This document shows positions 3,330 to 13,715 of a stretch of 16,166 nucleotides of DNA, one piece after another. The position numbers and the translations under genes were made by a program. How positions within the stretch are numbered: the first letter of the stretch is position 1; every line of letters begins with the position of its first letter. Below the pieces are notes generated by a model. It did not search any database. It saw only the letters and a program-made list of their open reading frames with translations, and was not told where the DNA came from. This DNA is from Acidimicrobiaceae bacterium (GTDB lineage: Bacteria > Actinomycetota > Acidimicrobiia > Acidimicrobiales > Salinilacustritrichaceae), in assembly GCA_003476595.1 (NCBI GenBank), contig DMTU01000254.1, positions 1,712-17,877 on the forward strand, given 5' to 3'.

Positions 3330-4253
3330 CTACGGGGCCGGTTCGCGGGGTGGCGGCGACGTGCGCTCGAAGGCTTCGGCGACGTCTTCGTAGGTGAGGG
3401 CGGGCGGGCCCTCGACGGTGACGGAGCCGTCCTCGGCGACGACCGCACGCCGGGCCGTGGTGCCCCGGTCCTGGCCCGAGCTCCACTTGAAGAAGAGCAC
3501 GATGATGACCGCCCAGAGGAACATGCCGCCGCCGAGCTTCATGATGAGGCCCGCCACCTGCTGGTCGTGGGTGGCCGAGAGGCCCCAGAGCCGGGCGGGC
3601 TTGTCGTAGACCTCGTACAGGACGCCGTCGGACAGCGCGAGCCAGGCCGCCGGGACCGTGGGGACGATGGAGATGAGGAAGAGGTGGACGCACTGGGCCG
3701 GGATCGTGGTGCGCAGCTCGGGCAGCGGGGAGACCACCGGCATCCAGACGGCGAACGCGGTGACGACCACGATCGTGTGCAGCGCGTAGTGCAGCAGGCC
3801 GTTCTCGACACTGGCGTTGACGACGACGCTCCAGTGGGTCAGCAGCTGGACGGCGTTGAACACCACGGCGGCCGGCACGGGTCGGGCCAGCTTGAGGAAC
3901 CAGCGGCCCACGTTGCCGTCGCCGATGACGAGGCGGGCCAGCCACTCGGGCGTGGCGAGCAGCATCACGGGCGGGATGAAGAAGGCCAGCATCATGTGCT
4001 GGAACATGTGCACGGAGTACAGGTACTGCTCGCCCACGTCGTGCATCGGCCAGTCTGCGGCGACCCACAGGAGCACGATGCCGAGGGCGAACCACCGCTT
4101 CTGCGCGGTGGTGACCACCGGTTGGCCGGCGGGGACGGCCCGGGGGCCGAGGTTGCGGACGGCGTAGGTGTAGAGCCCGACGAGCCCGAGGACCAGCACC
4201 CAGATCTCGGGGTGCGGCTGCCAGCGGAAGAAGTCCTCGGCGGCGAAGAGCAC
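3330..4253 (-). CDS. ctaG: Cytochrome c oxidase assembly factor CtaG (caa3-type)
   Basis: A 307-residue polytopic membrane protein of the caa3_CtaG family, required for assembly (probably copper delivery) of caa3-type oxidases in Gram-positive bacteria. Family features seen are a conserved block with H71, H82 and H86 (DWPMHDVGEQYLYSVHMFQH), then AFFIPPVMLLATPEW, and about seven hydrophobic segments up to residue 265. The last 40 residues are hydrophilic and acidic/proline-rich. The GTG start at 4253 has no Shine-Dalgarno sequence, but TAGGCT ends 6 bases before it, so a leaderless mRNA is likely. It is separated from the oxidase operon by the MOSC gene and transcribed alone. It is not the unrelated Cox11-type CtaG of proteobacteria. 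Confidence 0.92.
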   Translation of the reverse strand: MLFAAEDFFRWQPHPEIWVLVLGLVGLYTYAVRNLGPRAVPAGQPVVTTAQKRWFALGIVLLWVAADWPMHDVGEQYLYSVHMFQHMMLAFFIPPVMLLATPEWLARLVIGDGNVGRWFLKLARPVPAAVVFNAVQLLTHWSVVVNASVENGLLHYALHTIVVVTAFAVWMPVVSPLPELRTTIPAQCVHLFLISIVPTVPAAWLALSDGVLYEVYDKPARLWGLSATHDQQVAGLIMKLGGGMFLWAVIIVLFFKWSSGQDRGTTARRAVVAEDGSVTVEGPPALTYEDVAEAFERTSPPPREPAP

Positions 4254-4338: not shown

Positions 4339-5175
4339 ATGACCGTCGTCGGCACCGTCGCCTCCATCCACCGCTTCCCCATGAAGTCCATGCAGGGCGA
4401 GCAGCTGGCCGAGGTCGAGATCGGCCCCGATGGCATGGTCGGCGACCGGGAGTGGGCGCTGCGCGACATCGAGACCGGCAAGCTGGTCAGCGCCAAGCGG
4501 CCCCGACCGTGGCGGGCGGCGCTGGACTGCACCGCCACCGGCCTCGACGACGACGTCGAGATCACCATGCCCTGGGGCGACGTGTTCCACGTCCACGATG
4601 GCGGCCTCGCCGTCGCGCTCGAGGCGCTGTTCGGTCGCAGCGTGTCCCTGGAGCGGTCCGAGCGCCGCCAGCAGGGCACCTACGACTCGGAGTGGCCCGA
4701 GCTCGAGGGGATCACACTCTCGGGGGACATCGAGCTGCCCACCAACCTCGCCGGCGAGGGGCGCGGCTTCATCGACCTCGGCGTCCTGCACCTGCTGACC
4801 ACGTCGTCGATGGCGACGCTGGAGGCCGAGGACGACGACCTGGTGGTCGACGTCCGCCGGTTCCGGCCCAGCATCGTGGTCGACACCCCGGGCCTCGACG
4901 GGTTCCCGGAGAACGACGACTGGGCGGGCGCCACCCTGCGGATCGGTCGTGGCGACGACGCCGTGGAGGTCTCGATCGGGATCCCCACGCCCCGCTGCAT
5001 CATGACCACCGTGGCCCAGCAGGACGACCTGCCGCGCCAGCCCGGCGTGCTCCAGGCCATCGCCCGCCTCAACCGGCGCACCGACGAGCTCGGCACGTTC
5101 GCCTGCCTCGGCGCCTACGCGAACGTCGCCCGCCCCGGCACGGTGCGGGCGGGCGACGAGATCGAGCTGGTCTGA
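4339..5175 (+). CDS. MOSC-domain protein with N-terminal beta-barrel domain
   Basis: A 278-residue cytosolic protein. The start, GTVASIHRFPMKSMQGEQL, followed by GMVGDREWALRD, is the MOSC N-terminal beta-barrel domain. The C-terminal MOSC part has RRFRPSIVVD (173-182) and the conserved cysteine C220 in PTPRCIMTTVAQQ. MOSC proteins carry sulfur or molybdenum cofactor, as in MOCOS, mARC, YiiM and YcbX. The exact substrate of this stand-alone member is unknown, possibly N-hydroxylated compounds as for YcbX. The length is typical. It is the only gene in the ctaG-ctaA interval not obviously tied to the oxidase; it faces away from ctaG and converges on ctaF with just 7 bases between the stops. Confidence 0.9.
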   Translation: MTVVGTVASIHRFPMKSMQGEQLAEVEIGPDGMVGDREWALRDIETGKLVSAKRPRPWRAALDCTATGLDDDVEITMPWGDVFHVHDGGLAVALEALFGRSVSLERSERRQQGTYDSEWPELEGITLSGDIELPTNLAGEGRGFIDLGVLHLLTTSSMATLEAEDDDLVVDVRRFRPSIVVDTPGLDGFPENDDWAGATLRIGRGDDAVEVSIGIPTPRCIMTTVAQQDDLPRQPGVLQAIARLNRRTDELGTFACLGAYANVARPGTVRAGDEIELV

Positions 5176-5186
5176 CCGGAGGTCAG
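5172..5186. terminator. Short hairpin containing both convergent stop codons
   Basis: CTGACC-gga-GGTCAG is a perfect 6-bp inverted repeat with a 3-base loop. The TGA of the MOSC gene is in the left arm and the TGA of ctaF in the right arm. It could act as a minimal two-way terminator; no T-tract. Confidence 0.35.
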
Positions 5187-5605
5187 CCGGCGGGTGCGTC
5201 CTCGACGAGGAACGAGTCCTGGTCGTAGGTGCCGTCCTCGTACCGATCGGTCCAGAACTCGAAGGCGGTGAGCACGGCGAGGTACACGCCGACCGCCAGC
5301 AGCAGCCCGGCGACGAAGACGTTGCGGAACAGACGGTTGTCGAACTTCAGGTGCATGAAGTAGGCGCCGATCACGACGAACTTCAGCACCATCATGAAGA
5401 TGAGGCTGCCGATGAGCAGGGGCGCCAGCTCGTGGTCGTAGGGCGGATCGGCGATGAAGTACGTGCCGACCTCGAGCAGCGTGATGAGGCCGAGGGCGAG
5501 CCCGACCTTCCAGTACTGGGCGTCGCTCGGGTGGTGCTCGTGGCGGGCCTCGTCGGTGGCGGCCTCGTAGCCGGCGTCGGCCGTGCCCTCGTGGGTGACG
5601 GTCAT
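5183..5605 (-). CDS. ctaF: Cytochrome c oxidase subunit IV (CtaF/CoxD-like)
   Basis: A 140-residue small subunit of the caa3 oxidase, last gene of the operon. It has three hydrophobic helices (about residues 32-50, 61-83 and 93-115). The second contains MMVLKFVVIGAYFMHLKFDN, the hallmark of the prokaryotic COX4 family. The N-terminus is hydrophilic and His/Glu-rich (EARHEHHPSDAQYWKVG); the C-terminus is acidic. The subunit probably stabilises subunits I and III and has no cofactor. The ATG at 5605 has a good Shine-Dalgarno sequence (GGAGGAG, 9-11 bases upstream). It lies 22 bases after ctaE. Confidence 0.9.
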   Translation of the reverse strand: MTVTHEGTADAGYEAATDEARHEHHPSDAQYWKVGLALGLITLLEVGTYFIADPPYDHELAPLLIGSLIFMMVLKFVVIGAYFMHLKFDNRLFRNVFVAGLLLAVGVYLAVLTAFEFWTDRYEDGTYDQDSFLVEDAPAG

Positions 5606-5627: not shown

Positions 5628-6293
5628 TCACGGGATGAGGTAGACGATCGTGAAGATCAGGACCCACACGATGTCGACGAAGTGCCAGTACAGGCCGACG
5701 ATCTCGACGGTCTCGGCCCGGTCCTGCTTGAGCCGGCCGGTGAGCGAGAGCACGAACAGCGACATCAGCATGATGATGCCGACGGTGACGTGGACGCCGT
5801 GGAAGCCGGTGAGGCTGTAGAAGGCCGACGAGAACAGGTTCGTGGTGTAGCCCAGGCCCTCGCGGTAGAAGGACGTGAACTCGTAGACCTGGCCGGCGAT
5901 GAAGGTGCCGCCGAGGAGCGAGGTCACCAGCAGCCACAGGCGCAGCTTCTGGTCGTCGCCCCGGGCGATCGCCGAGACGGCGAACACCATCGACATCGAC
6001 GACATCAGCAGCACGAAGCTCGACACCGACGTGAACGGGATGTCGAAGACGTCCTCGGGGCCGATGCCGGTGCCGCGGTGGCGCATCAGCAGGTACGTGG
6101 AGATCAGGGCGCCGAACAGCAGGCAGTCGGAGCCGAGGAACAGCCACATGCCGAGCTTGTTGTTGCTGAGCCCGGTGGCGTTGTTGGTGCCGAGGCCCCA
6201 GCTCTCGAGGTCGACGCCGTCGAGGTGGTCGGGGGCCGGGCCGGTCGCCTCGGTGGGCGTCGCTGCCACGCGGGTGGGGGCGTTGTCAGTCAA
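5628..6293 (-). CDS. ctaE: Cytochrome c oxidase subunit III
   Basis: A 221-residue membrane protein, the standard subunit III of heme-copper oxidases, which supports proton uptake and turnover stability of subunit I. The motifs are intact: GMWLFLGSDCLLFGALIST (48-66, with Asp where Glu is usual), GFHGVHVTVG (163-172) and LYWHFVDIVW (201-210). Five helices are evident, matching short bacterial forms. The start is a judgement: a TTG at 6293, overlapping the ctaD stop by 8 bases and preceded by AAGGAG about 10 bases upstream. A GTG at 6269 is the alternative. A longer frame with an ATG at 6344 would lie 59 bases inside ctaD and is unlikely. Confidence 0.93.
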   Translation of the reverse strand: MTDNAPTRVAATPTEATGPAPDHLDGVDLESWGLGTNNATGLSNNKLGMWLFLGSDCLLFGALISTYLLMRHRGTGIGPEDVFDIPFTSVSSFVLLMSSMSMVFAVSAIARGDDQKLRLWLLVTSLLGGTFIAGQVYEFTSFYREGLGYTTNLFSSAFYSLTGFHGVHVTVGIIMLMSLFVLSLTGRLKQDRAETVEIVGLYWHFVDIVWVLIFTIVYLIP

Positions 6294-8331
6294 CGAGGGT
6301 CGTCTCCTTGTCGGCGTCCCCGTCGGTGGGGGACGCGGCGGCATCGGAGCCGTCGGTCGGAGTGTGGTCGGCGTGCCCGTCGTGGTGGCCGTGGCCGCCG
6401 TCGGGGTCGTCGGCGGGCTCCATCGCGAGCCCGTAGATGGCGAGCAGCGCCAGGGCGCCGCCGGCGAATGCGATGCCGAGGTTGAAGATCAGGCCCCATC
6501 CGATGAGCGGGAAGGACGCGCACAGCAGGATCGGCCAGTAGGACGGCGCGGGGAGGTGGACGTCGCGGCGGTGGCCGGTCTGGGCGACGTCCTCGGCGGC
6601 GGCGATTCGCACGATGCGGTGGTCGTCGGTCTCGCCGTACTTGCGGTACCAGAACTCGTCGCGGTGGGTGACGACGGGGACGTGGTCGAAGTTGTGCGTC
6701 GGCGCCGGCGAGGCCGTCATCCACTCGATCGACCGCGCATCCCACGGATCGGGACCCGGGGCGACCCACTCGGGCTTCCTGGCGTCGCGCCTGGACACGA
6801 AGATGTTCCAGAAGAAGATCAGGAACGACAGGGCGATCATGAAGGCGCCGATGGTGGACACCAGGTTCCAGACGTTGAAGCCGTAGCCGTCGAAGTAGCT
6901 GTGCGTCCGGCGCGGCATGCCCTGCAGGCCCAGGACGTGCATCGGGCCGAAGGTCAGGTTGAAGCCGAGCAGCATCGTCCAGAAGTGGGCCTTGCCGAGG
7001 CCTTCCCGGAGCATGTGGCCGAAGGCCTTGGGCCACCAGTAGTAGAAGCCGCCGACGAAGCCGAACAGGGCGCCGCCGAAGAGCACGTAGTGGAAGTGGG
7101 CGACGATGTAGTACGTGTCGGTCTGCTGGGTGTCGGCCGGGGCGACGGCGTGGGACACGCCCGACAGGCCGCCGATGGTGAACATCGTGACCAGGCCGAT
7201 CGAGAACAGCATCGGTGTCGTGAACGTGAGCTTGCCGCCCCACATGGTGGCCATCCAGTTCAGGATCTTCACGCCCGTCGGCACGGCGATGAACATCGTC
7301 GAGACGGCGAAGGCTGCCACGGAGATCGGCCCGATGCCCGAGGCGAACATGTGGTGGGCCCACACGCCCCAACCCATGAAGCCGATGGCGGCGCCGGAGA
7401 AGACGATGAACTCGTAGCCGAAGATCGGCTTGCGGGAGAACACCGGGATGGTCTCCGACACGATGCCGAAGGCCGGCAGGATCATGATGTAGACCTCGGG
7501 GTGGCCGAAGATCCAGAAGAGGTGCTCCCAGAGGAGCGGATCGGCCCCGGCGCTCACATCGAAGAAGTTGGCGTCGAAGAGCCGGTCGAAGGTGAGCAGG
7601 AACAGCGCCACCGAGATGACCGGCATCGCGAAGAGCAGCAGGAACTGCGTCACGAGCGACATCCAGGTGAACACGGGCATCTTCATGAGCGTCATGCCCG
7701 GCGCCCGCATGTTGAGGATCGTGGCGATCAGGTTGATGGCACCGACCAGCGAGGCGATGCCGGTGATCTGCAGGCCGATGGCGTAGAAGTCCATGCCGTG
7801 GCTCGGGCTGAAGATGACCGAGGTGTTGGGGGCGTAGGCGAACCAGCCGCCGTCGGCGGCGCCGCCGCCGAGGAACCACGAGCTGTTGAAGAAGAGCCCA
7901 CCGAAGAGGAAGCACCAGAACGAGAAGGCGTTCAGGCGGGGGAACGCCACGTCCCGGGCCCCGATCTGCAGGGGCACCAAGAAGTTGGCGAAGGCGGCGC
8001 CGATGGGCATGACGACCAGGAAGATCATCGTCACGCCGTGCATGGTGAACAGCTGGTTGTAGAGGTCGGCGGAGACGATCTCCTGCTCCGGCGCCGCCAG
8101 CTGCGTGCGGATGATCAGGGCCTCGATGCCGCCGACCAGGAAGAAGAACAGCGCGGCGGCGCCGTACATGATGCCGATGCGCTTGTGGTCGACCGTGAAG
8201 AGCCAGGAGCGCCAGCCCGTGTCGCCCTGGGGCCGGCGGAAGACGCCGAGGGCGTCGTCCGGCGAGGCGTGGCGGGGCCCGGCTTCGAGCTCGAGCGCCT
8301 CGGAGGTGGTGGGTCGTTCGACGATGGCCAT
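6286..8331 (-). CDS. ctaD: Cytochrome c oxidase subunit I with C-terminal TM extension and His-rich tail
   Basis: A 681-residue catalytic subunit of an A-type (aa3/caa3) oxidase that reduces O2 to water and pumps protons. All key residues are present. Low-spin heme a: H98 and H414. Heme a3: H412. CuB: H277, H326, H327. The cross-linked tyrosine is Y281 (GHPEVYI), with E279 of the D-channel. D-channel entry is D127 and N134; K-channel is T352 and K355. GMPRRTHSY (471-479) contacts heme propionates. It exceeds the usual ~550 residues: after about residue 540 a linker leads to an extra hydrophobic hairpin (597-636) resembling subunit IV and then a tail, GGHGHHDGHADH (645-656). The ATG has GAGGAA upstream. 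It starts 11 bases after the ctaC stop. Confidence 0.97.
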   Translation of the reverse strand: MAIVERPTTSEALELEAGPRHASPDDALGVFRRPQGDTGWRSWLFTVDHKRIGIMYGAAALFFFLVGGIEALIIRTQLAAPEQEIVSADLYNQLFTMHGVTMIFLVVMPIGAAFANFLVPLQIGARDVAFPRLNAFSFWCFLFGGLFFNSSWFLGGGAADGGWFAYAPNTSVIFSPSHGMDFYAIGLQITGIASLVGAINLIATILNMRAPGMTLMKMPVFTWMSLVTQFLLLFAMPVISVALFLLTFDRLFDANFFDVSAGADPLLWEHLFWIFGHPEVYIMILPAFGIVSETIPVFSRKPIFGYEFIVFSGAAIGFMGWGVWAHHMFASGIGPISVAAFAVSTMFIAVPTGVKILNWMATMWGGKLTFTTPMLFSIGLVTMFTIGGLSGVSHAVAPADTQQTDTYYIVAHFHYVLFGGALFGFVGGFYYWWPKAFGHMLREGLGKAHFWTMLLGFNLTFGPMHVLGLQGMPRRTHSYFDGYGFNVWNLVSTIGAFMIALSFLIFFWNIFVSRRDARKPEWVAPGPDPWDARSIEWMTASPAPTHNFDHVPVVTHRDEFWYRKYGETDDHRIVRIAAAEDVAQTGHRRDVHLPAPSYWPILLCASFPLIGWGLIFNLGIAFAGGALALLAIYGLAMEPADDPDGGHGHHDGHADHTPTDGSDAAASPTDGDADKETTLVD

Positions 8332-8342
8332 GGTGTGGTTCC

Positions 8343-9548
8343 TCAGTCGAGACTGGTCAGGTAGGCGACCAGGGAGTCGATGTCGGCCTCGCTGAGGCCG
8401 AGGTTCGGCATGCCGCGGTTGTCGTCTGCGGCCATGGGCTTCTCACCGGGCGGGTTGCGCAGCCAGGCTTCGAGCTGGTTGCGGTTGAGCTCGCCACCGA
8501 TCTCGTCCCAGTCGACGGCCTCGTTGCCGTCGGCGTCCTGCCACAGGTTGAAGATCGAGCCGGCGTAGGTGCCCCGGCTGGCGAAGTGGGTGAGGTTCGG
8601 GGCGGCCCCGGACACGACGGTGGCGCCGTCGTACTCGTCGTTCGTGCCCTCGACCAGGTGGCAGCTGGCGCAGCGGCCGGCGAAGACCTCGGCGCCGGCC
8701 TGCTCCTCCGCGCCCTGGGGCTCGGTGGCGGGGGCGAGCTGCTCCTCGACCCAGGCCTCGTACTCGGCCTCGGGGAGGGCGTGCACGACCATGCGCATGT
8801 AGGCGTGGGACAGACCGCAGTACTCGGTGCACTGGCCCACGTAGGTGCCGGGCTCGTCGGCCTCGAGGGACAGGTAGTGGGTGCGGCCGGGGACGGCGTC
8901 CTTCTTGCCGTTGAGCGCCGGGATCCAGAAGCTGTGGATCACGTCGCGGGCCTCGATCTCGAGGTACACGGGCTTGCCGGCCGGGATCACCATCTCGTTG
9001 GCGACCTCGATGTCGGTCTCGTACTCCTCGGGGTTCTCGATGCCCGGGGCGATGACGTCGTCGTCGGCGTAGACGCCGTCGCCGTCGATGTCGTAGTCGT
9101 AGGACCACCACCACTGCTGGCCCACGACCCGGATGCGGGTGGCCTCCTCGCCGGGGTCCTCGGCGAGGTCGAGGATGGTGCTGACCGTGAACACGGCCAT
9201 GAAGGCGAGGATGACGGCGGGCAGGGCGGTCCAGCCGATCTCGAGCTTGGTGTTGCCGTGGAGCTGCTCGGGCAGCTCGTCGCCGGTGTCGTCCTTGCGC
9301 TTGCGGAACTTCCACACCACGAACAGGACGCCGACCTCGACGAGGACGAACACGATGCCGGCCAGGATGAAGGTCAGGTCGGACAGGCCGTCGATCTTGG
9401 AGGCGGCGGGGCCCTCGGGCTCGAGGGTGGTCTGGGGCGTGTCGCCGTCGAGGCTCATGGCGCAGCCCGACAGGACCAGTCCGGCGAGCGCGAGCAGGCC
9501 GAAGAGGCGGACCCGGACGCTGCCGACGGTGGAACGGAAGCGGTGCAT
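8343..9548 (-). CDS. ctaC: Cytochrome c oxidase subunit II fused to cytochrome c (caa3 type)
   Basis: A 401-residue lipoprotein that takes electrons from cytochrome c or its fused heme domain to CuA and then heme a. In order: signal peptide with lipobox LSGC (C29); two transmembrane helices (about 57-80 and 104-126); electron-entry aromatics QQWWWSYDY (144-152); CuA centre H205, C240, E242, C244, H248, M251; linker; cytochrome c domain with CASCH (C293, C296, H297) and likely axial M380. An acidic insert directly after the tryptophans (151-164) matches an EF-hand-like DxDxDG pattern. The ATG at 9548 shares its A with the TGA of the upstream gene (TGATG), with GAGGAG as ribosome-binding site, so the genes are translationally coupled. 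Confidence 0.96.
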   Translation of the reverse strand: MHRFRSTVGSVRVRLFGLLALAGLVLSGCAMSLDGDTPQTTLEPEGPAASKIDGLSDLTFILAGIVFVLVEVGVLFVVWKFRKRKDDTGDELPEQLHGNTKLEIGWTALPAVILAFMAVFTVSTILDLAEDPGEEATRIRVVGQQWWWSYDYDIDGDGVYADDDVIAPGIENPEEYETDIEVANEMVIPAGKPVYLEIEARDVIHSFWIPALNGKKDAVPGRTHYLSLEADEPGTYVGQCTEYCGLSHAYMRMVVHALPEAEYEAWVEEQLAPATEPQGAEEQAGAEVFAGRCASCHLVEGTNDEYDGATVVSGAAPNLTHFASRGTYAGSIFNLWQDADGNEAVDWDEIGGELNRNQLEAWLRNPPGEKPMAADDNRGMPNLGLSEADIDSLVAYLTSLD

Positions 9549-10375
9549 CAGTTGCTCTCCTCGGAGGCGCCTTCGTCGGTGCTCTCGTCGCTGGCCCCGG
9601 CCTCGGCGCCGCCCTCTTCGGCGTGCTCCTCGGAGAGGTCGTGGAACTCGCGCTCGCCGGCCACGGCACCGAAGATGCCGAGGCCGATGGTGACCACGGC
9701 GGCCGCGGCGAGCACGCCGGCGACGAGGTCGGTGCGGATGCGGGGGCGGAGCGAGAGGATCGTGCCGATGACGAAGATGGTGGCCGCGATCGCCAGCGCG
9801 ATCCAGACAGCCCCCAGCTTGCTCACGGCGAGGAACACCCGCGAGTAGCCGACGATGACGATCGCGATGGCGAGGATGCCGGCCAGCGGGACCTCGATGG
9901 GGAACATGATCCGGTTGCGGATCTCGCGGTTGACCGCGGGGTCGCCGGTGGCCCGGTCGGCCCAGGCCTGCATCGTCCACTCGATGGCGACCGCGCCCAG
10001 GGCGATGAGGCCGGCGACGAAGAAGACGTTGTTGAGCACGACGCCGACGACGGTGAGGACGACGCCGAAGGCGCCCACGACCGGCCAGAAGGACGAGCCG
10101 GTGGTGGTGGCGGCGGGGACGGTGTCGGCGCCGAGCAGGGCGGCGGTGGGCTCGGGATCGGCGTCGCGGAACGCGGTGACGCAGAACCCGGCGAACAGGG
10201 CCGACACCGCACCGGCGAGCAGGATGCCGTAGCCGAGGTGCTCGCCGACGCCGCCCTTGTAGCCGAAGCTGATCGGGCCGACGCCCCCGCCGCCGCTGGC
10301 GTAGCCGTAGACCACGGCGGCGAACGCCAGGAGGGCGGCGACGCCGTAGAAGAACTTGGAACCGGTGGTGATCAT
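9548..10375 (-). CDS. Unknown 7-TM protein of the oxidase operon, with subunit IV-like hairpin
   Basis: A 275-residue polytopic membrane protein that I cannot assign by name. Hydrophobic segments lie near residues 8-26, 46-68, 96-113, 114-133, 161-182, 186-208 and 217-239. The acidic Ser/Glu-rich tail (241-275) is probably cytoplasmic. Residues 95-122 align without gaps to the extra hairpin of CtaD (597-624), sharing S, WP, L, G, N and AG, so this stretch looks like the actinobacterial subunit IV fold. No CxxCH or obvious heme-ligand pattern is seen; the few histidines are H46, H245 and H251. Its place between ctaE2 (10-base gap) and ctaC (1-base overlap) makes it very likely an oxidase subunit or assembly partner. 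Confidence 0.85.
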   Translation of the reverse strand: MITTGSKFFYGVAALLAFAAVVYGYASGGGGVGPISFGYKGGVGEHLGYGILLAGAVSALFAGFCVTAFRDADPEPTAALLGADTVPAATTTGSSFWPVVGAFGVVLTVVGVVLNNVFFVAGLIALGAVAIEWTMQAWADRATGDPAVNREIRNRIMFPIEVPLAGILAIAIVIVGYSRVFLAVSKLGAVWIALAIAATIFVIGTILSLRPRIRTDLVAGVLAAAAVVTIGLGIFGAVAGEREFHDLSEEHAEEGGAEAGASDESTDEGASEESN

Positions 10376-10385
10376 CGGTGCTCGC

Positions 10386-11024
10386 CTACTTCACGATCAA
10401 GATGCCGTACCAGAGGACCACGAAGATCCCGACGGTCACGTACCAGTACAGAGCGGCAGCGGACAGGCCCTCGACGTCGCGGCCGGTGAACTGGCCACCG
10501 AGGCTGCGGAGCAGCATGAGGGTGAAGAAGATCAGGGCCGCGGCGGCCATGGCGACGTGGAGCCCCATGATCGTGAAGAGCAGCACGGCCTGCATGGTGG
10601 GCTCGCCGTTGAGGGGGAGCTCCCACTGCGTGAACAGGAAGCCGAGCTGCACGACGTGGGCGATGCCGAGGAGCACGGTGAGGCCGAGGGCGAAGTAGGC
10701 GTGGCCACGGTCCTGCTGCTTGCCGGCGTGCACGGCCCACTGCGCGGTGATCAGCGACATCACCAGCGTGACCATCGTCATGTTGCCCGGGGACAGCGGG
10801 ATGGAGGCGCCGTCGGGCAGCCACTGCTCGCCCTGGCCGATCACCTCGGCCCGGAGGGCGAAGTAGGCCGAGAGCAGACCGCCGAACAGGGCGATCGAGG
10901 CGGCGGACGCCAGCGCGGTGCCGACGAGGAGCACCCGGGGCCGCCGAGGCGGTGCCGGTGGCACGTCCTCCAGGCGCAGCGGGAGCCGTTCGGGGGTCGG
11001 GGTGGTCGCGGTGGCCGTGGCCAT
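10386..11024 (-). CDS. Second, degenerate oxidase subunit III-like protein
   Basis: A 212-residue membrane protein of the heme-copper oxidase subunit III family. It has about five helices: 32-58, 80-99, 108-131, 144-173 and 188-210. The family pattern is recognisable (LFGGLLSAYFALRA, LFTIMGLHVAMAAAALIFF, ALYWYVTVGIFVVLWY). However, the usual YWHFVD motif is YWYVTV (193-198), so the conserved His and Asp are lost, and the Glu of helix 1 is missing. It probably pairs with the equally degenerate ctaD2 just upstream rather than with CtaD. The ATG at 11024 shares a base with the ctaD2 stop (TGATG) and has GGAGG 7 bases upstream. An ordinary subunit III (ctaE) exists downstream, so this is a second copy. 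Confidence 0.88.
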   Translation of the reverse strand: MATATATTPTPERLPLRLEDVPPAPPRRPRVLLVGTALASAASIALFGGLLSAYFALRAEVIGQGEQWLPDGASIPLSPGNMTMVTLVMSLITAQWAVHAGKQQDRGHAYFALGLTVLLGIAHVVQLGFLFTQWELPLNGEPTMQAVLLFTIMGLHVAMAAAALIFFTLMLLRSLGGQFTGRDVEGLSAAALYWYVTVGIFVVLWYGILIVK

Positions 11025-12637
11025 CACTTCGCCTCCGTGGTCGAGGGGCCGGCGCCGTGGCGGGCGTCGTACACCGGGGCCTCCGAGGTGATCGCGGGGG
11101 TCGCACCAGCGGGCGCCCACTCGAGGGTGTTGCCCTCCCACGGGTCGTCCCCGTCGTGGTCCCGCCCGACCGCAGCCTTCAGGACGAGCCCGACGAAGGC
11201 GACGGCGACGAGCACCAGGAGCAGGCCACCGACGATGCTGACGACGTTGAGCACCTCGACGGCGTCGACGTCGTCGCCGCTCACGCCCTGCAGGCGCCAG
11301 GCCTGCTCGAGGAAGCCGGTGATGACGTCGGGCAGGCAGAGCAGGATCGTGCCGACCAGCCCGAGCGCGGCCAGCGCCTTCGACGCGACCTCCTGCACCG
11401 GGGTGCCGAGCAGTCGGGGCGCCCAGTGGGCGAGGCCGGCGAAGAGCCCGAGCAGCGAGGCGACGAGCACGTAGTGGATCTGGGCGGTCTGGGCCGTGGT
11501 CTGGATCAGGTCGAGCGGCTCGATCGCCACCAGGATCCCGTTGAGGATGCCGGTGAGGAGCATCAGCAGCGAGGCCACACCCCACAGCAGCGGGCTGGTG
11601 ACCCGGAGCGAGCCCCGGCGCACCGTGTCGCCGAGCAGGCCGGCGAAGGCGAGGGCGGGCAGCAGGATCAGGATCGAGAAGGCGTAGAAGGGCACGTCGC
11701 CGACGTGGAGCAGCGGTGCCGCACCGTCGGCCCCGAAGCCGGGCATGGCCCAGGCGCCGAAGGCGAGGGCGCCGAAGGCACCGATGGCGCCCTGGGCGAT
11801 GCGGTGCTTGGAGAGGCGGGTGCGGGCCGACACCGGGACGATGTCGCCGATGATGCCGAGGACCGGGATGGCGAACAGGTAGACGCTGGGCTGGGACCAG
11901 GCCCAGGCGATGCGGTCGAGGACGCCGCCGCTGCCGCCGAGGAAGGTCGGGCCGTAGCGGTGGTCGACGTAGACCAGCAGCATCAGGCCGGCGAGGACCG
12001 GGAGCTGGAGGACGACCAGTGCGGCGGTGACGAGGCTCGACCAGGCGAACAGCGGCGTGCGGTGGAGGCCCATGCCGGTGGTTCGCAGCGCGACCGCCGT
12101 GGTGGCGACGCAGATGGTGCCGAGGACCAGGGCGAGCAGCACGGCGATGAAGGAGGCGACGAACAGCTCCACGAAGCGGCTGTCGGCGCCGAAGGGGCCG
12201 CCGTCGGCCACGAAGGAGGCGATGAGCACCGCCCCGCCGAGGAGGTAGGTCCAGTAGGCCGCGGCGGTGGCTCGGGGGAAGGCGACCGTGGCCGCGCCGA
12301 CCTGGGCCGGCACCACGTGGATGCCGAGGCCGATGAAGAGCGGCAGCAGGAACAGGAAGGTGCCGGCGATGCCGTGGAGGCTGAGGGTCTCGCCGAAGAC
12401 GTCGGCGCCGAGCACGTCGCCCAGGCCGTCGGTGTCGACCTTCTCGACGCCCACCAGGGCGCCGGCCACGCCGGCGACGAGCAGGTAGGCGAAGGAGGTG
12501 AAGATCCACAGCCGTCCGATGGTGCGGTGCTCGCCCGTGCCCAGCACGGCGGCGAGGCCGGTGGAGGGGCGAGGCGGCTCCAGAGCCGGAGCGGGGGTGG
12601 TGGCCGCAGGCGGCGCTTGGGTTTCAGTCACGGTCAT
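11024..12637 (-). CDS. Catalytically dead oxidase subunit I paralogue keeping only the low-spin heme site
   Basis: A 537-residue, roughly 12-TM protein clearly homologous to CtaD. LHGIAGTFLF (87-96), VPAQVGAATVAFPR (109-122), WSQPSVYLFAIPVLGII (247-263) and IHYVL (387-391) all align. The low-spin heme ligands H88 and H388 are kept. Every ligand of the O2-reducing centre is replaced: the CuB histidines are Q249, M298 and P299, and the heme a3 histidine is Q386. The channel residues are gone too: Glu is S251, Asp is T117, and the K-channel TGVK motif is absent. Y253 remains. It therefore cannot reduce O2 but could hold one heme for electron transfer, or be structural. The ATG at 12637 follows GGAGGAG by 12 bases. 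It is first in the operon, and automatic annotation would probably call it a normal subunit I. Confidence 0.92.
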   Translation of the reverse strand: MTVTETQAPPAATTPAPALEPPRPSTGLAAVLGTGEHRTIGRLWIFTSFAYLLVAGVAGALVGVEKVDTDGLGDVLGADVFGETLSLHGIAGTFLFLLPLFIGLGIHVVPAQVGAATVAFPRATAAAYWTYLLGGAVLIASFVADGGPFGADSRFVELFVASFIAVLLALVLGTICVATTAVALRTTGMGLHRTPLFAWSSLVTAALVVLQLPVLAGLMLLVYVDHRYGPTFLGGSGGVLDRIAWAWSQPSVYLFAIPVLGIIGDIVPVSARTRLSKHRIAQGAIGAFGALAFGAWAMPGFGADGAAPLLHVGDVPFYAFSILILLPALAFAGLLGDTVRRGSLRVTSPLLWGVASLLMLLTGILNGILVAIEPLDLIQTTAQTAQIHYVLVASLLGLFAGLAHWAPRLLGTPVQEVASKALAALGLVGTILLCLPDVITGFLEQAWRLQGVSGDDVDAVEVLNVVSIVGGLLLVLVAVAFVGLVLKAAVGRDHDGDDPWEGNTLEWAPAGATPAITSEAPVYDARHGAGPSTTEAK

Positions 12638-12809: not shown

Positions 12810-13706
12810 TCAGAATCCGCTGCGCACCAGCTGGTCCAGCGCCATGGCACCGAACAGGAGGCTCACGTACGTGATGGACCACCCGAAGAGGCGCATGGCC
12901 CGGGCGTAGGAGGCGTCGCGGAGCAGCCGGTACGCCTGGTAGGTGAAGATGGCGCCGAGCACGGTGGCGGCGGCGACGTACAGGGCGCCCATGCCGGCCA
13001 CCGGGGCGAACAGGAGCGTCAGGGCCCAGGTGACCACCGTGTAGGCGATCATCTGGCGCACCGTGGAGCGCACGTCGGCGACCACCGGCATCATCGGCAC
13101 CTCGGCCGCGGCGTAGTCGTCCTTGTACTTGATGGCCAGCGCCCAGAAGTGGGGCGGGGTCCAGAAGAAGATGACCCCGAACAGGATCACCGGCGCCCAG
13201 TCCAGGGAGTTGGTGACGCTGGACCAGCCGATGAGCACCGGCACGGCCCCGGCCGCACCGCCGATCACGATGTTCTGCGTGGAGGTCCGCTTCAGCCACA
13301 GCGTGTAGACGAACACGTAGAACAGGCAGGCGGCCACGGCCAGCACGGCCGAGAGCAGGTTGACCGTCGACCACAGGAGGGCGAACGCGGCGACCTCGAG
13401 GGCGATGGCGAACACGAGGGCGTTGCGGGGCTCGATGACCCCGGTGACCAGCGGGCGGTTGCGGGTGCGGGCCATCAGGGCGTCGATGTCGCGGTCGACG
13501 TACATGTTGACGGCGTGGGCACCACCGGCGGCGAGGGTGCCGCCGACCACGGTGGTGACGATGAGCCACAGCGACGGGATGCCCCGGGCGGCCACGATCT
13601 GGACGGGCACCGTGGTCACCAGCAGCAGCTCGATGATCTGCGGCTTCGTCAGCGAGACGTAGGCGCCGACCTTGGACCGGAGCGAGGGGGTGGCGGCCAC
13701 GAGCAT
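12810..13706 (-). CDS. ctaB: Heme O synthase (protoheme IX farnesyltransferase)
   Basis: A UbiA-family membrane prenyltransferase that adds farnesyl to heme B, giving heme O for the aa3 oxidase. With the ATG start it is 298 residues. The first Mg-diphosphate motif NMYVDRDID gives N67, D71 and D75. YTLWLKRTSTQN (134-145) and the second acidic motif DDYAAAEVPMMP (from 196) are the CtaB-specific loops. Eight to nine helices are seen and the length is normal. The frame also has a GTG at 13712, but the -10-like TAGGCT ends only 3 bases before it, whereas the ATG at 13706 is 9 bases away. The ATG is therefore preferred, on a leaderless mRNA. It is divergent from ctaA, the next enzyme of the pathway. 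Confidence 0.95.
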   Translation of the reverse strand: MLVAATPSLRSKVGAYVSLTKPQIIELLLVTTVPVQIVAARGIPSLWLIVTTVVGGTLAAGGAHAVNMYVDRDIDALMARTRNRPLVTGVIEPRNALVFAIALEVAAFALLWSTVNLLSAVLAVAACLFYVFVYTLWLKRTSTQNIVIGGAAGAVPVLIGWSSVTNSLDWAPVILFGVIFFWTPPHFWALAIKYKDDYAAAEVPMMPVVADVRSTVRQMIAYTVVTWALTLLFAPVAGMGALYVAAATVLGAIFTYQAYRLLRDASYARAMRLFGWSITYVSLLFGAMALDQLVRSGF

Positions 13707-13715
13707 GACCACGTG

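What the first reader, a model, noticed from the sequence alone, without database searches (positions are those of the whole stretch)
11024..12637. Oxidase subunit I paralogue with the O2-reducing centre erased but the low-spin heme site kept
Aligned by eye to the intact CtaD of the same operon, this protein keeps both low-spin heme histidines (H88 and H388, matching CtaD H98 and H414). It replaces all four ligands of the binuclear centre: CuB H277 is Q249, H326/H327 are M298/P299, and heme a3 H412 is Q386. The D-channel Asp, the Glu before the Tyr and the K-channel motif are gone as well. The frame is intact over 537 codons and the fold motifs are conserved, so this looks like a retained function, not decay. 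A single-heme subunit I could relay electrons to the real oxidase, accept them from quinol or another donor, or act as a structural dimer partner. I know of no described system of this kind.
Basis: partly seen in the sequence, partly recalled or inferred. Interest (0 to 1): 0.85.

Follow-up and report, generated by a model that had tools for sequence, protein, structure and literature searches.

The report
Dead oxidase module kept for structure
Next to a working oxygen-reducing enzyme, this bacterium carries a second, incomplete copy that can no longer reduce oxygen; the copy is kept in many relatives, even where it has also lost its heme sites, so it probably works as a structural partner rather than as an enzyme.

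Summary
The 537-aa protein at 11027-12637 (-) has the fold of a type-A oxidase subunit I, keeps both low-spin heme histidines (H88, H388) and has lost all CuB ligands and the heme a3 ligand. It is not a one-off and not a stand-alone gene. It heads a three-gene module: subunit I', CtaE-like III' and a CtaF-like protein, together resembling a complex IV without subunit II. In 64 of 64 named loci the genes present are collinear: ctaB, module, caa3 operon. No homologue examined has a full CuB site. The low-spin site is kept in the window's clade (79 of 82) and in a basal clade (120 of 120 listed), but 52 of 97 dereplicated rows have lost one or both of its His. Versions without the pair remain under purifying selection (dN/dS 0.04-0.24 in 11 pairs, 9 of them lacking both His). 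So one-heme electron relay cannot be the role family-wide. Structural partnership fits best, perhaps as a dock for the split-cytochrome-b complex III; module and split b agree in 57 of 59 genomes, a link not shown to be independent of ancestry. I found no description in the searched library. Complex formation, heme content and function are untested.

The parts
11024..12637 (-). Subunit I' (pseudo-CtaD): type-A oxidase subunit I fold, low-spin heme His pair kept, CuB and heme a3 ligands gone
10386..11018 (-). Subunit III' (CtaE-like, 210 aa); best NCBIfam match actinobacterial CtaE (55.7 bits, under its cut-off), best PDB match C. glutamicum subunit 3
9548..10375 (-). TMx (275 aa): N-terminal half CtaF-like (inconclusive by Pfam, supported by profiles); C-terminal half related to a membrane domain that is fused to a cupredoxin in basal relatives and in other orders and classes
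8343..9551 (-). CtaC, subunit II with CuA-type domain and fused cytochrome c (caa3 type)
6286..8331 (-). CtaD, intact subunit I of the same operon (all ligands present)
5628..6344 (-). CtaE, subunit III of the same operon
5183..5605 (-). CtaF / subunit IV (COX4_pro)
12810..13712 (-). CtaB (UbiA family, heme O synthase), found upstream of the module in 62 of 64 named loci (the other two end there)
3330..4253 (-). CtaG (Caa3_CtaG) oxidase assembly factor

Best explanation
Subunit I', subunit III' and TMx form a complex-IV-like membrane module that cannot reduce O2 and has no subunit II. It is kept as a structural partner of the caa3 oxidase encoded next to it. Most likely it packs against that oxidase and/or serves as its dock for the bc complex. 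Shown: the residue losses, the conserved locus, the homologies, purifying selection with and without the low-spin His pair, and the co-occurrence with split cytochrome b. Inferred: the physical complex, the docking surface, and that the low-spin heme in the window's clade is bound and acts mainly as a structural strut. Also inferred, from distribution on the tree: descent from a redox-active ancestor, with CuB absent in every row examined, the a3 ligand absent in most, the low-spin pair absent in about half, and the cupredoxin of TMx absent in most.
For: (1) Locus: of 64 named loci with I', III' is found in 61, TMx in 60, CtaC in 59, and the genes found are collinear in 64. The absences lie at contig ends, except L038, where a III'-like start breaks off. 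(2) None of 88 I' ORFs at genome loci has three CuB His; 68 of 73 CtaD ORFs there are exactly HHEYHHHHKD. (3) Loss of the heme site without loss of constraint: in 11 close pairs lacking one (2 pairs) or both (9 pairs) low-spin His, I' dN/dS is 0.04-0.24; 38 columns are at least 90% conserved both in rows with and in rows without the pair. (4) III' and TMx resemble CtaE and CtaF. In the M. smegmatis III2IV2 supercomplex the main III-IV contacts run through CtaE, CtaF and QcrB (PMC8361435, passage seen). (5) Module and split cytochrome b: both in 39, neither in 18, one only in 1 and 1, of 59 genomes of the order.
Against: No complex has been observed or modelled. The co-occurrence is not shown to be independent of ancestry: on a poorly supported 52-genome rpoB tree the module changes 5 times and only 1 contrast lies on well-supported branches. 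The module lies beside the caa3 operon wherever the contig of a named locus reaches, so split b may go with the operon rather than with the module. In the window's clade 79 of 82 sequences keep both heme His and in a basal clade 120 of 120 listed, so a heme-dependent role is under selection in some lineages. TMx as CtaF is supported by profiles only; the window protein has no PF12270 match.
Confidence: 0.55

Rival explanations
1. Single-heme electron relay: I' takes electrons through its low-spin heme from the bc complex, from quinol, or (in basal members) from the TMx cupredoxin, and passes them to the real oxidase or stores one.
For: Low-spin His pair kept in 79 of 82 close sequences and in 120 of 120 listed basal-type homologues, which also carry an invariant Arg at the first CuB position and mostly (97 of 120) the a3 His. 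In five basal loci TMx ends in a Pfam-detectable cupredoxin and I' has both low-spin His. The residue aligned to a heme-propionate Arg (role recalled) is R in 66 of 82 window-clade sequences, and in 18 of the 45 rows with the pair on the wider set.
Against: 52 of 97 dereplicated rows lack one or both low-spin His, and tested pairs of such species are under purifying selection. The window's TMx has no cupredoxin, and the module has no subunit II. The residue aligned to the Arg that binds the heme a formyl group (role recalled) is Gly or Ser in 61 of 97 rows. A counter-case: L178 has a cupredoxin-like tail (by eye) but no low-spin His pair, in a gene that reads in pieces.
Confidence: 0.2
2. Heterodimer partner only: I'-III'-TMx replaces the second protomer of an oxidase dimer and does not touch complex III.
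For: Constant linkage to ctaC-D-E-F; subunit I-mediated oxidase dimers exist, e.g. Aquifex CoxA2 (PMC8251803, abstract seen).
Against: Does not by itself explain the match with split cytochrome b or the retention of CtaE- and CtaF-like parts.
Confidence: 0.15
3. Assembly or heme/copper-loading factor: I' is a scaffold used while CtaD is matured (it lies next to ctaB and the operon holds ctaG).
For: Position behind ctaB in 62 of 64 named loci.
Against: A set of I', III' and a CtaF-like protein is an odd design for a chaperone; caa3 operons without the module elsewhere in the phylum (L162, L167, L168) also have ctaB and ctaG nearby.
Confidence: 0.07
4. Decaying pseudogene set.
For: Metal ligands missing to different degrees in different lineages; a few loci read in pieces (L178, and I' of G027).
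Against: The 88 I' ORFs are open over 521-909 codons stop to stop; dN/dS 0.04-0.24; presence in 40 of 59 genomes of the order.
Confidence: 0.02

Closest known systems
Type-A heme-copper oxidase subunit I (CtaD/CoxA; caa3 and actinobacterial aa3)
   Same: Fold, COX1 domain, C-terminal DPW...EW motif, low-spin heme His pair in the window's clade
   Different: No CuB, no a3 ligand, no D- or K-channel residues, no cognate subunit II in the module; many relatives have lost the low-spin His too
CtaE/CtaF of the actinobacterial III2IV2 (bcc-aa3) supercomplex
   Same: III' and TMx resemble CtaE and CtaF, the subunits that contact complex III in M. smegmatis (PMC8361435, passage)
   Different: Here they accompany a second, catalytically dead subunit I, and the genome has a split cytochrome b; TMx has an extra membrane half, with a cupredoxin in basal members
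Aquifex aeolicus oxidase dimer through CoxA2 (PMC8251803, abstract)
   Same: Shows that subunit I can be a dimer interface with functional effect
   Different: A homodimer of active B-family subunits
Core proteins of mitochondrial complex III (inactive processing-peptidase paralogues; recalled)
   Same: Works-like precedent: paralogues that lost catalysis but are kept as structural subunits of a respiratory complex
   Different: Unrelated fold and complex

Membership tests
Catalytic heme-copper oxygen reductase subunit I | COX1 fold / Pfam PF00115 | tested here: met
   (188 bits, cut-off 34.8); Foldseek E 6e-20
Catalytic heme-copper oxygen reductase subunit I | Three CuB His ligands | tested here: not met
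   Q249, M298, P299
Catalytic heme-copper oxygen reductase subunit I | Heme a3 proximal His | tested here: not met
   Q386
Catalytic heme-copper oxygen reductase subunit I | Two low-spin heme His | tested here: met
   H88, H388; both kept in 79 of 82 close sequences
Catalytic heme-copper oxygen reductase subunit I | D- and K-channel residues of type A | tested here: not met
   D->T, K->F at the two key positions
CtaD_CoxA equivalog (NCBIfam TIGR02891) | Score over curated cut-off 670.75 | tested here: not met
   240.6 bits
Subunit III / actinobacterial CtaE (for III') | Match over curated cut-off | tested here: inconclusive
   PF00510 COX3 26.5 bits, over its cut-off of 23.8, but NF050119 actinobacterial CtaE 55.7 bits, under its cut-off of 190; best PDB match C. 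glutamicum subunit 3, E 3e-9
Actinobacterial CtaF (for the TMx N-half) | PF12270 or clear profile match | tested here: inconclusive
Structural pseudo-subunit | Catalytic residues lost but sequence under purifying selection | tested here: met
Structural pseudo-subunit | Present in the purified complex | not testable with these tools
   needs biochemistry

The most novel reading that the evidence does not exclude
The basal form of this module is a new kind of redox machine: an oxidase fold with an invariant low-spin heme site, usually the high-spin heme ligand, an invariant Arg where CuB should be, no subunit II in the module, and a blue-copper-like domain on its CtaF-like partner. It would be a copper-fed 'half oxidase' that relays or senses electrons inside a bc-caa3 supercomplex, with the window's protein a later, one-heme stage of its conversion to a scaffold.
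Probability: 0.2. Interest if true: 0.92.

Novelty: new variant of a known kind. Interest (0 to 1): 0.72.

Why it matters
Oxidase surveys can be blind to it by design: the HCO classifier paper states that sequences lacking the six conserved His were discarded (PMC3084760, passage seen). A dead complex-IV module kept in many families of one order offers a natural experiment. It shows which oxidase surfaces are still needed, perhaps for assembly or supercomplex contact, when catalytic ligands, proton-channel residues and finally heme ligands are gone, and it makes the role of III-IV contacts directly testable.

Tried and rejected
Sulfolobales FoxA/FoxA' as a precedent (recalled lead): the search listing and passages of PMC10654088 describe FoxA as a putative oxidase subunit and mention no ligand loss; not pursued further. 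Nitrospina oxidase (PMC3578206, passages): a Trp->Gly and other changes near CuB; the passages report no loss of the CuB His ligands, so not of this kind. Assembly-factor review (PMC9145763, passages): nothing on such a paralogue in the passages seen. Ten literature searches listed no paper that, by title or abstract start, describes the family; the library holds only open-licence PMC papers and only the top listings were seen, so absence is weak evidence.

Origin of I' from aa3 or caa3 CtaD: the tree puts it on a long branch between them, unresolved. Foldseek with the TMx model found nothing at E <= 0.001; ferritin-like and GPCR rows look like common helical matches. Sign test for joint loss of the two low-spin His on the tree: too few independent pairs. 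Third COX1-like hit of the genome, G000:C115 (19.3 bits): ORFs of the contig listed, not pursued.

First rpoB tree split into two groups of 13 and 39 rows on very long branches, apparently because the script picked wrong open frames; it was redone with the stated strands. Of 59 genomes 52 had a usable rpoB segment; for G054, with two rpoB hits, I took contig C8; three segments are shorter (G012, G040, G023).

Rows dropped or capped before counts: greedy clustering at 75% identity cut 215 rows to 97, L178 not included. Only the best 120 of 484 and of 361 homologues were listed. Only 80 loci were kept of 575 confirmed, ranked by similarity to the window, and 16 of the 80 gave no I'. The 88 I' ORFs are 24 from genome-search loci plus 64 from named loci and include at least one organism twice (the L005 and L034 stretches). 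Of these 88, 18 have a His aligned to some CuB column. In one search L054 is used in two pairs, and dS exceeds 1 for L052/L062 and L087/L089. In one search one weak TMx hit (G050, 2e-4) was counted as absent.

Full report
WHAT IS THERE. The window lies in a draft genome of 4.24 Mb in 358 contigs, 79.8% complete. The nearest named genome found is Acidimicrobiia bacterium EGI L10123 (97% identity over the protein). On the minus strand run ctaB, subunit I', a subunit III-like gene (III'), a 275-aa membrane protein (TMx), ctaC with fused cytochrome c, ctaD, ctaE, ctaF and, after a MOSC gene on the other strand, ctaG. I' is 537 aa with an ATG start that homologues share: M1, T2 and T4 are invariant in 39 aligned sequences.

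IT IS A FAMILY WITH A FIXED LOCUS. A protein search found 484 homologues and listed 120. In the window protein plus these 120, none has a His at any of the three CuB positions, and 3 have a His at the a3 position. A named-genome search kept 80 loci of 575 confirmed; 64 of the 80 have I'. In these 64, ctaB is found in 62, III' in 61, TMx in 60, CtaC in 59, CtaD in 55, CtaE and CtaF in 49, and the genes found are collinear in 64; the absences are contig ends, except L038, where a III'-like start breaks off. In one basal locus (L175) the module lies about 5 kb away from its caa3 operon. Among 88 I' ORFs at genome loci 0 have three CuB His, 18 have a His aligned to some CuB column, and 9 keep both low-spin His. 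Of 73 CtaD ORFs from the same loci 68 are exactly HHEYHHHHKD at the ten positions; the other five are one truncated, one with an X, and three with a change outside the His ligands.

THE LIGANDS ARE MISSING TO DIFFERENT DEGREES. A tree of 97 dereplicated I' rows with 15 CtaD rows, ligand columns removed, gives one I' clade (SH-aLRT 100, quick method). In it 45 rows keep both low-spin His, 36 lack both, 13 keep only the first and 3 only the second; the pair changes at least 7 times. The basal rows and most of the window's wider clade keep the pair; none of the 40 rows of the large sister clade does. A second search seeded with a basal member (361 homologues, 120 listed) gave 120 of 120 with both low-spin His, 120 of 120 with Arg at the first CuB position, and 97 of 120 with the a3 His. 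In the window's own clade 79 of 82 sequences keep both low-spin His, so the site is maintained there, which speaks for a bound heme in this lineage. The residue aligned to the Arg that binds the heme a formyl (role recalled; CtaD R75, R in 15 of 15 CtaD rows) is Gly or Ser in 61 of 97 I' rows, so heme A is not assured. That losses rather than gains are seen is inferred from the CtaD outgroup.

SELECTION. Against EGI L10123, dN/dS (NG86) is 0.21 for I', 0.15 for III', 0.25 for TMx and 0.11 for CtaD. Against a more distant same-genus genome (L006) the estimates are 0.51, 0.34 and 0.52 for I', III' and TMx and 0.35 for CtaB; NG86 ignores base composition, so I take these as upper estimates. In 11 pairs of species whose I' lacks both low-spin His (9 pairs) or one (2 pairs), I' dN/dS is 0.04-0.24, III' 0.03-0.20 and TMx 0.04-0.25; CtaD, measurable in 9 of the pairs, is 0.02-0.10. 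So I' mostly evolves faster than CtaD but is clearly constrained without the His pair. 38 columns are at least 90% conserved both in rows with and in rows without the pair.

RESPIRATORY CONTEXT. The own genome has a split cytochrome b (b6-like 263 aa plus a separate C-terminal part) with a Rieske protein, a cytochrome c with two CxxCH motifs (by eye) and a 2x[4Fe-4S] ferredoxin. In 59 genomes of the order the module marker TMx (E < 1e-20) is in 40, split b (E < 1e-60) in 40, both in 39, neither in 18; G048 shows only the module and G027 only split b, both incomplete (88% and 80%). Three genomes without the module whose loci I read have long QcrB and aa3-type CtaD (L127-L129). On a 52-genome rpoB tree (poorly supported) the module changes 5 times and split b 6 times; only one contrast lies on well-supported branches, so the association is not shown to be independent of descent. 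In a class sample of 296 genomes (completeness filter 90%) every TMx match under 1e-20 is in the same order. In a phylum sample of 296, matches from outside the class cover mainly profile positions 137-265; the rest are weak (E 1e-7 or worse) and cover other parts of the profile.

MECHANISM. Best supported: a structural, non-catalytic complex-IV-like module that partners the caa3 oxidase and may dock the bc complex. Its redox centres seem to have eroded roughly in the order CuB, a3, low-spin heme, while structural positions stayed; the order is inferred. The window's protein is a stage that still holds the low-spin site, probably as a cofactor that stabilises the helix bundle. Electron relay remains possible for basal members with cupredoxin and for the window's clade, but not for the family as a whole.

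KNOWN OR NEW. Ten searches of the open-licence library (listings seen) and passages or abstracts of six papers show no description of such a module. One HCO database paper discarded sequences lacking the six His (PMC3084760, passage), which may explain the gap. Subscription literature was not searched.

Noticed in passing
window 6418-6552 (-), C-terminus of CtaD: The C-terminal extension of the intact CtaD matches the second half of PF12270 (actinobacterial CtaF) at 22.4 bits, below cut-off, as in several relatives: CtaF-like helices may be fused to CtaD here.
   Followed up: no
window 4339-5175 (+): A MOSC-domain gene (PF03473, PF03476) stands between ctaF and ctaG, against the operon direction.
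   Followed up: partly
L130 (G000:C16:4000-14000): Split cytochrome b operon with a 2x[4Fe-4S] ferredoxin directly before cytochrome b6, which seems unusual for a respiratory bc complex (recalled).
   Followed up: partly
L160, L161, L163, L165, L172 (other orders and classes): A membrane protein with C-terminal cupredoxin-type domain follows ctaG in caa3 operons and is related to the C-half of TMx; possibly a membrane-bound electron donor of these oxidases.
   Followed up: partly
L173, L174, L176, L177 and P0122-P0241: Basal I' proteins with an invariant Arg at the first CuB position (120 of 120 listed) and mostly the a3 His (97 of 120): a possible two-heme, CuB-free oxidase fold.
   Followed up: partly
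L178 (G043:C9:41000-54000): I' and CtaD read in overlapping pieces, suggesting frameshifts or assembly errors; TMx keeps a cupredoxin-like tail while I' lacks the low-spin His.
   Followed up: no
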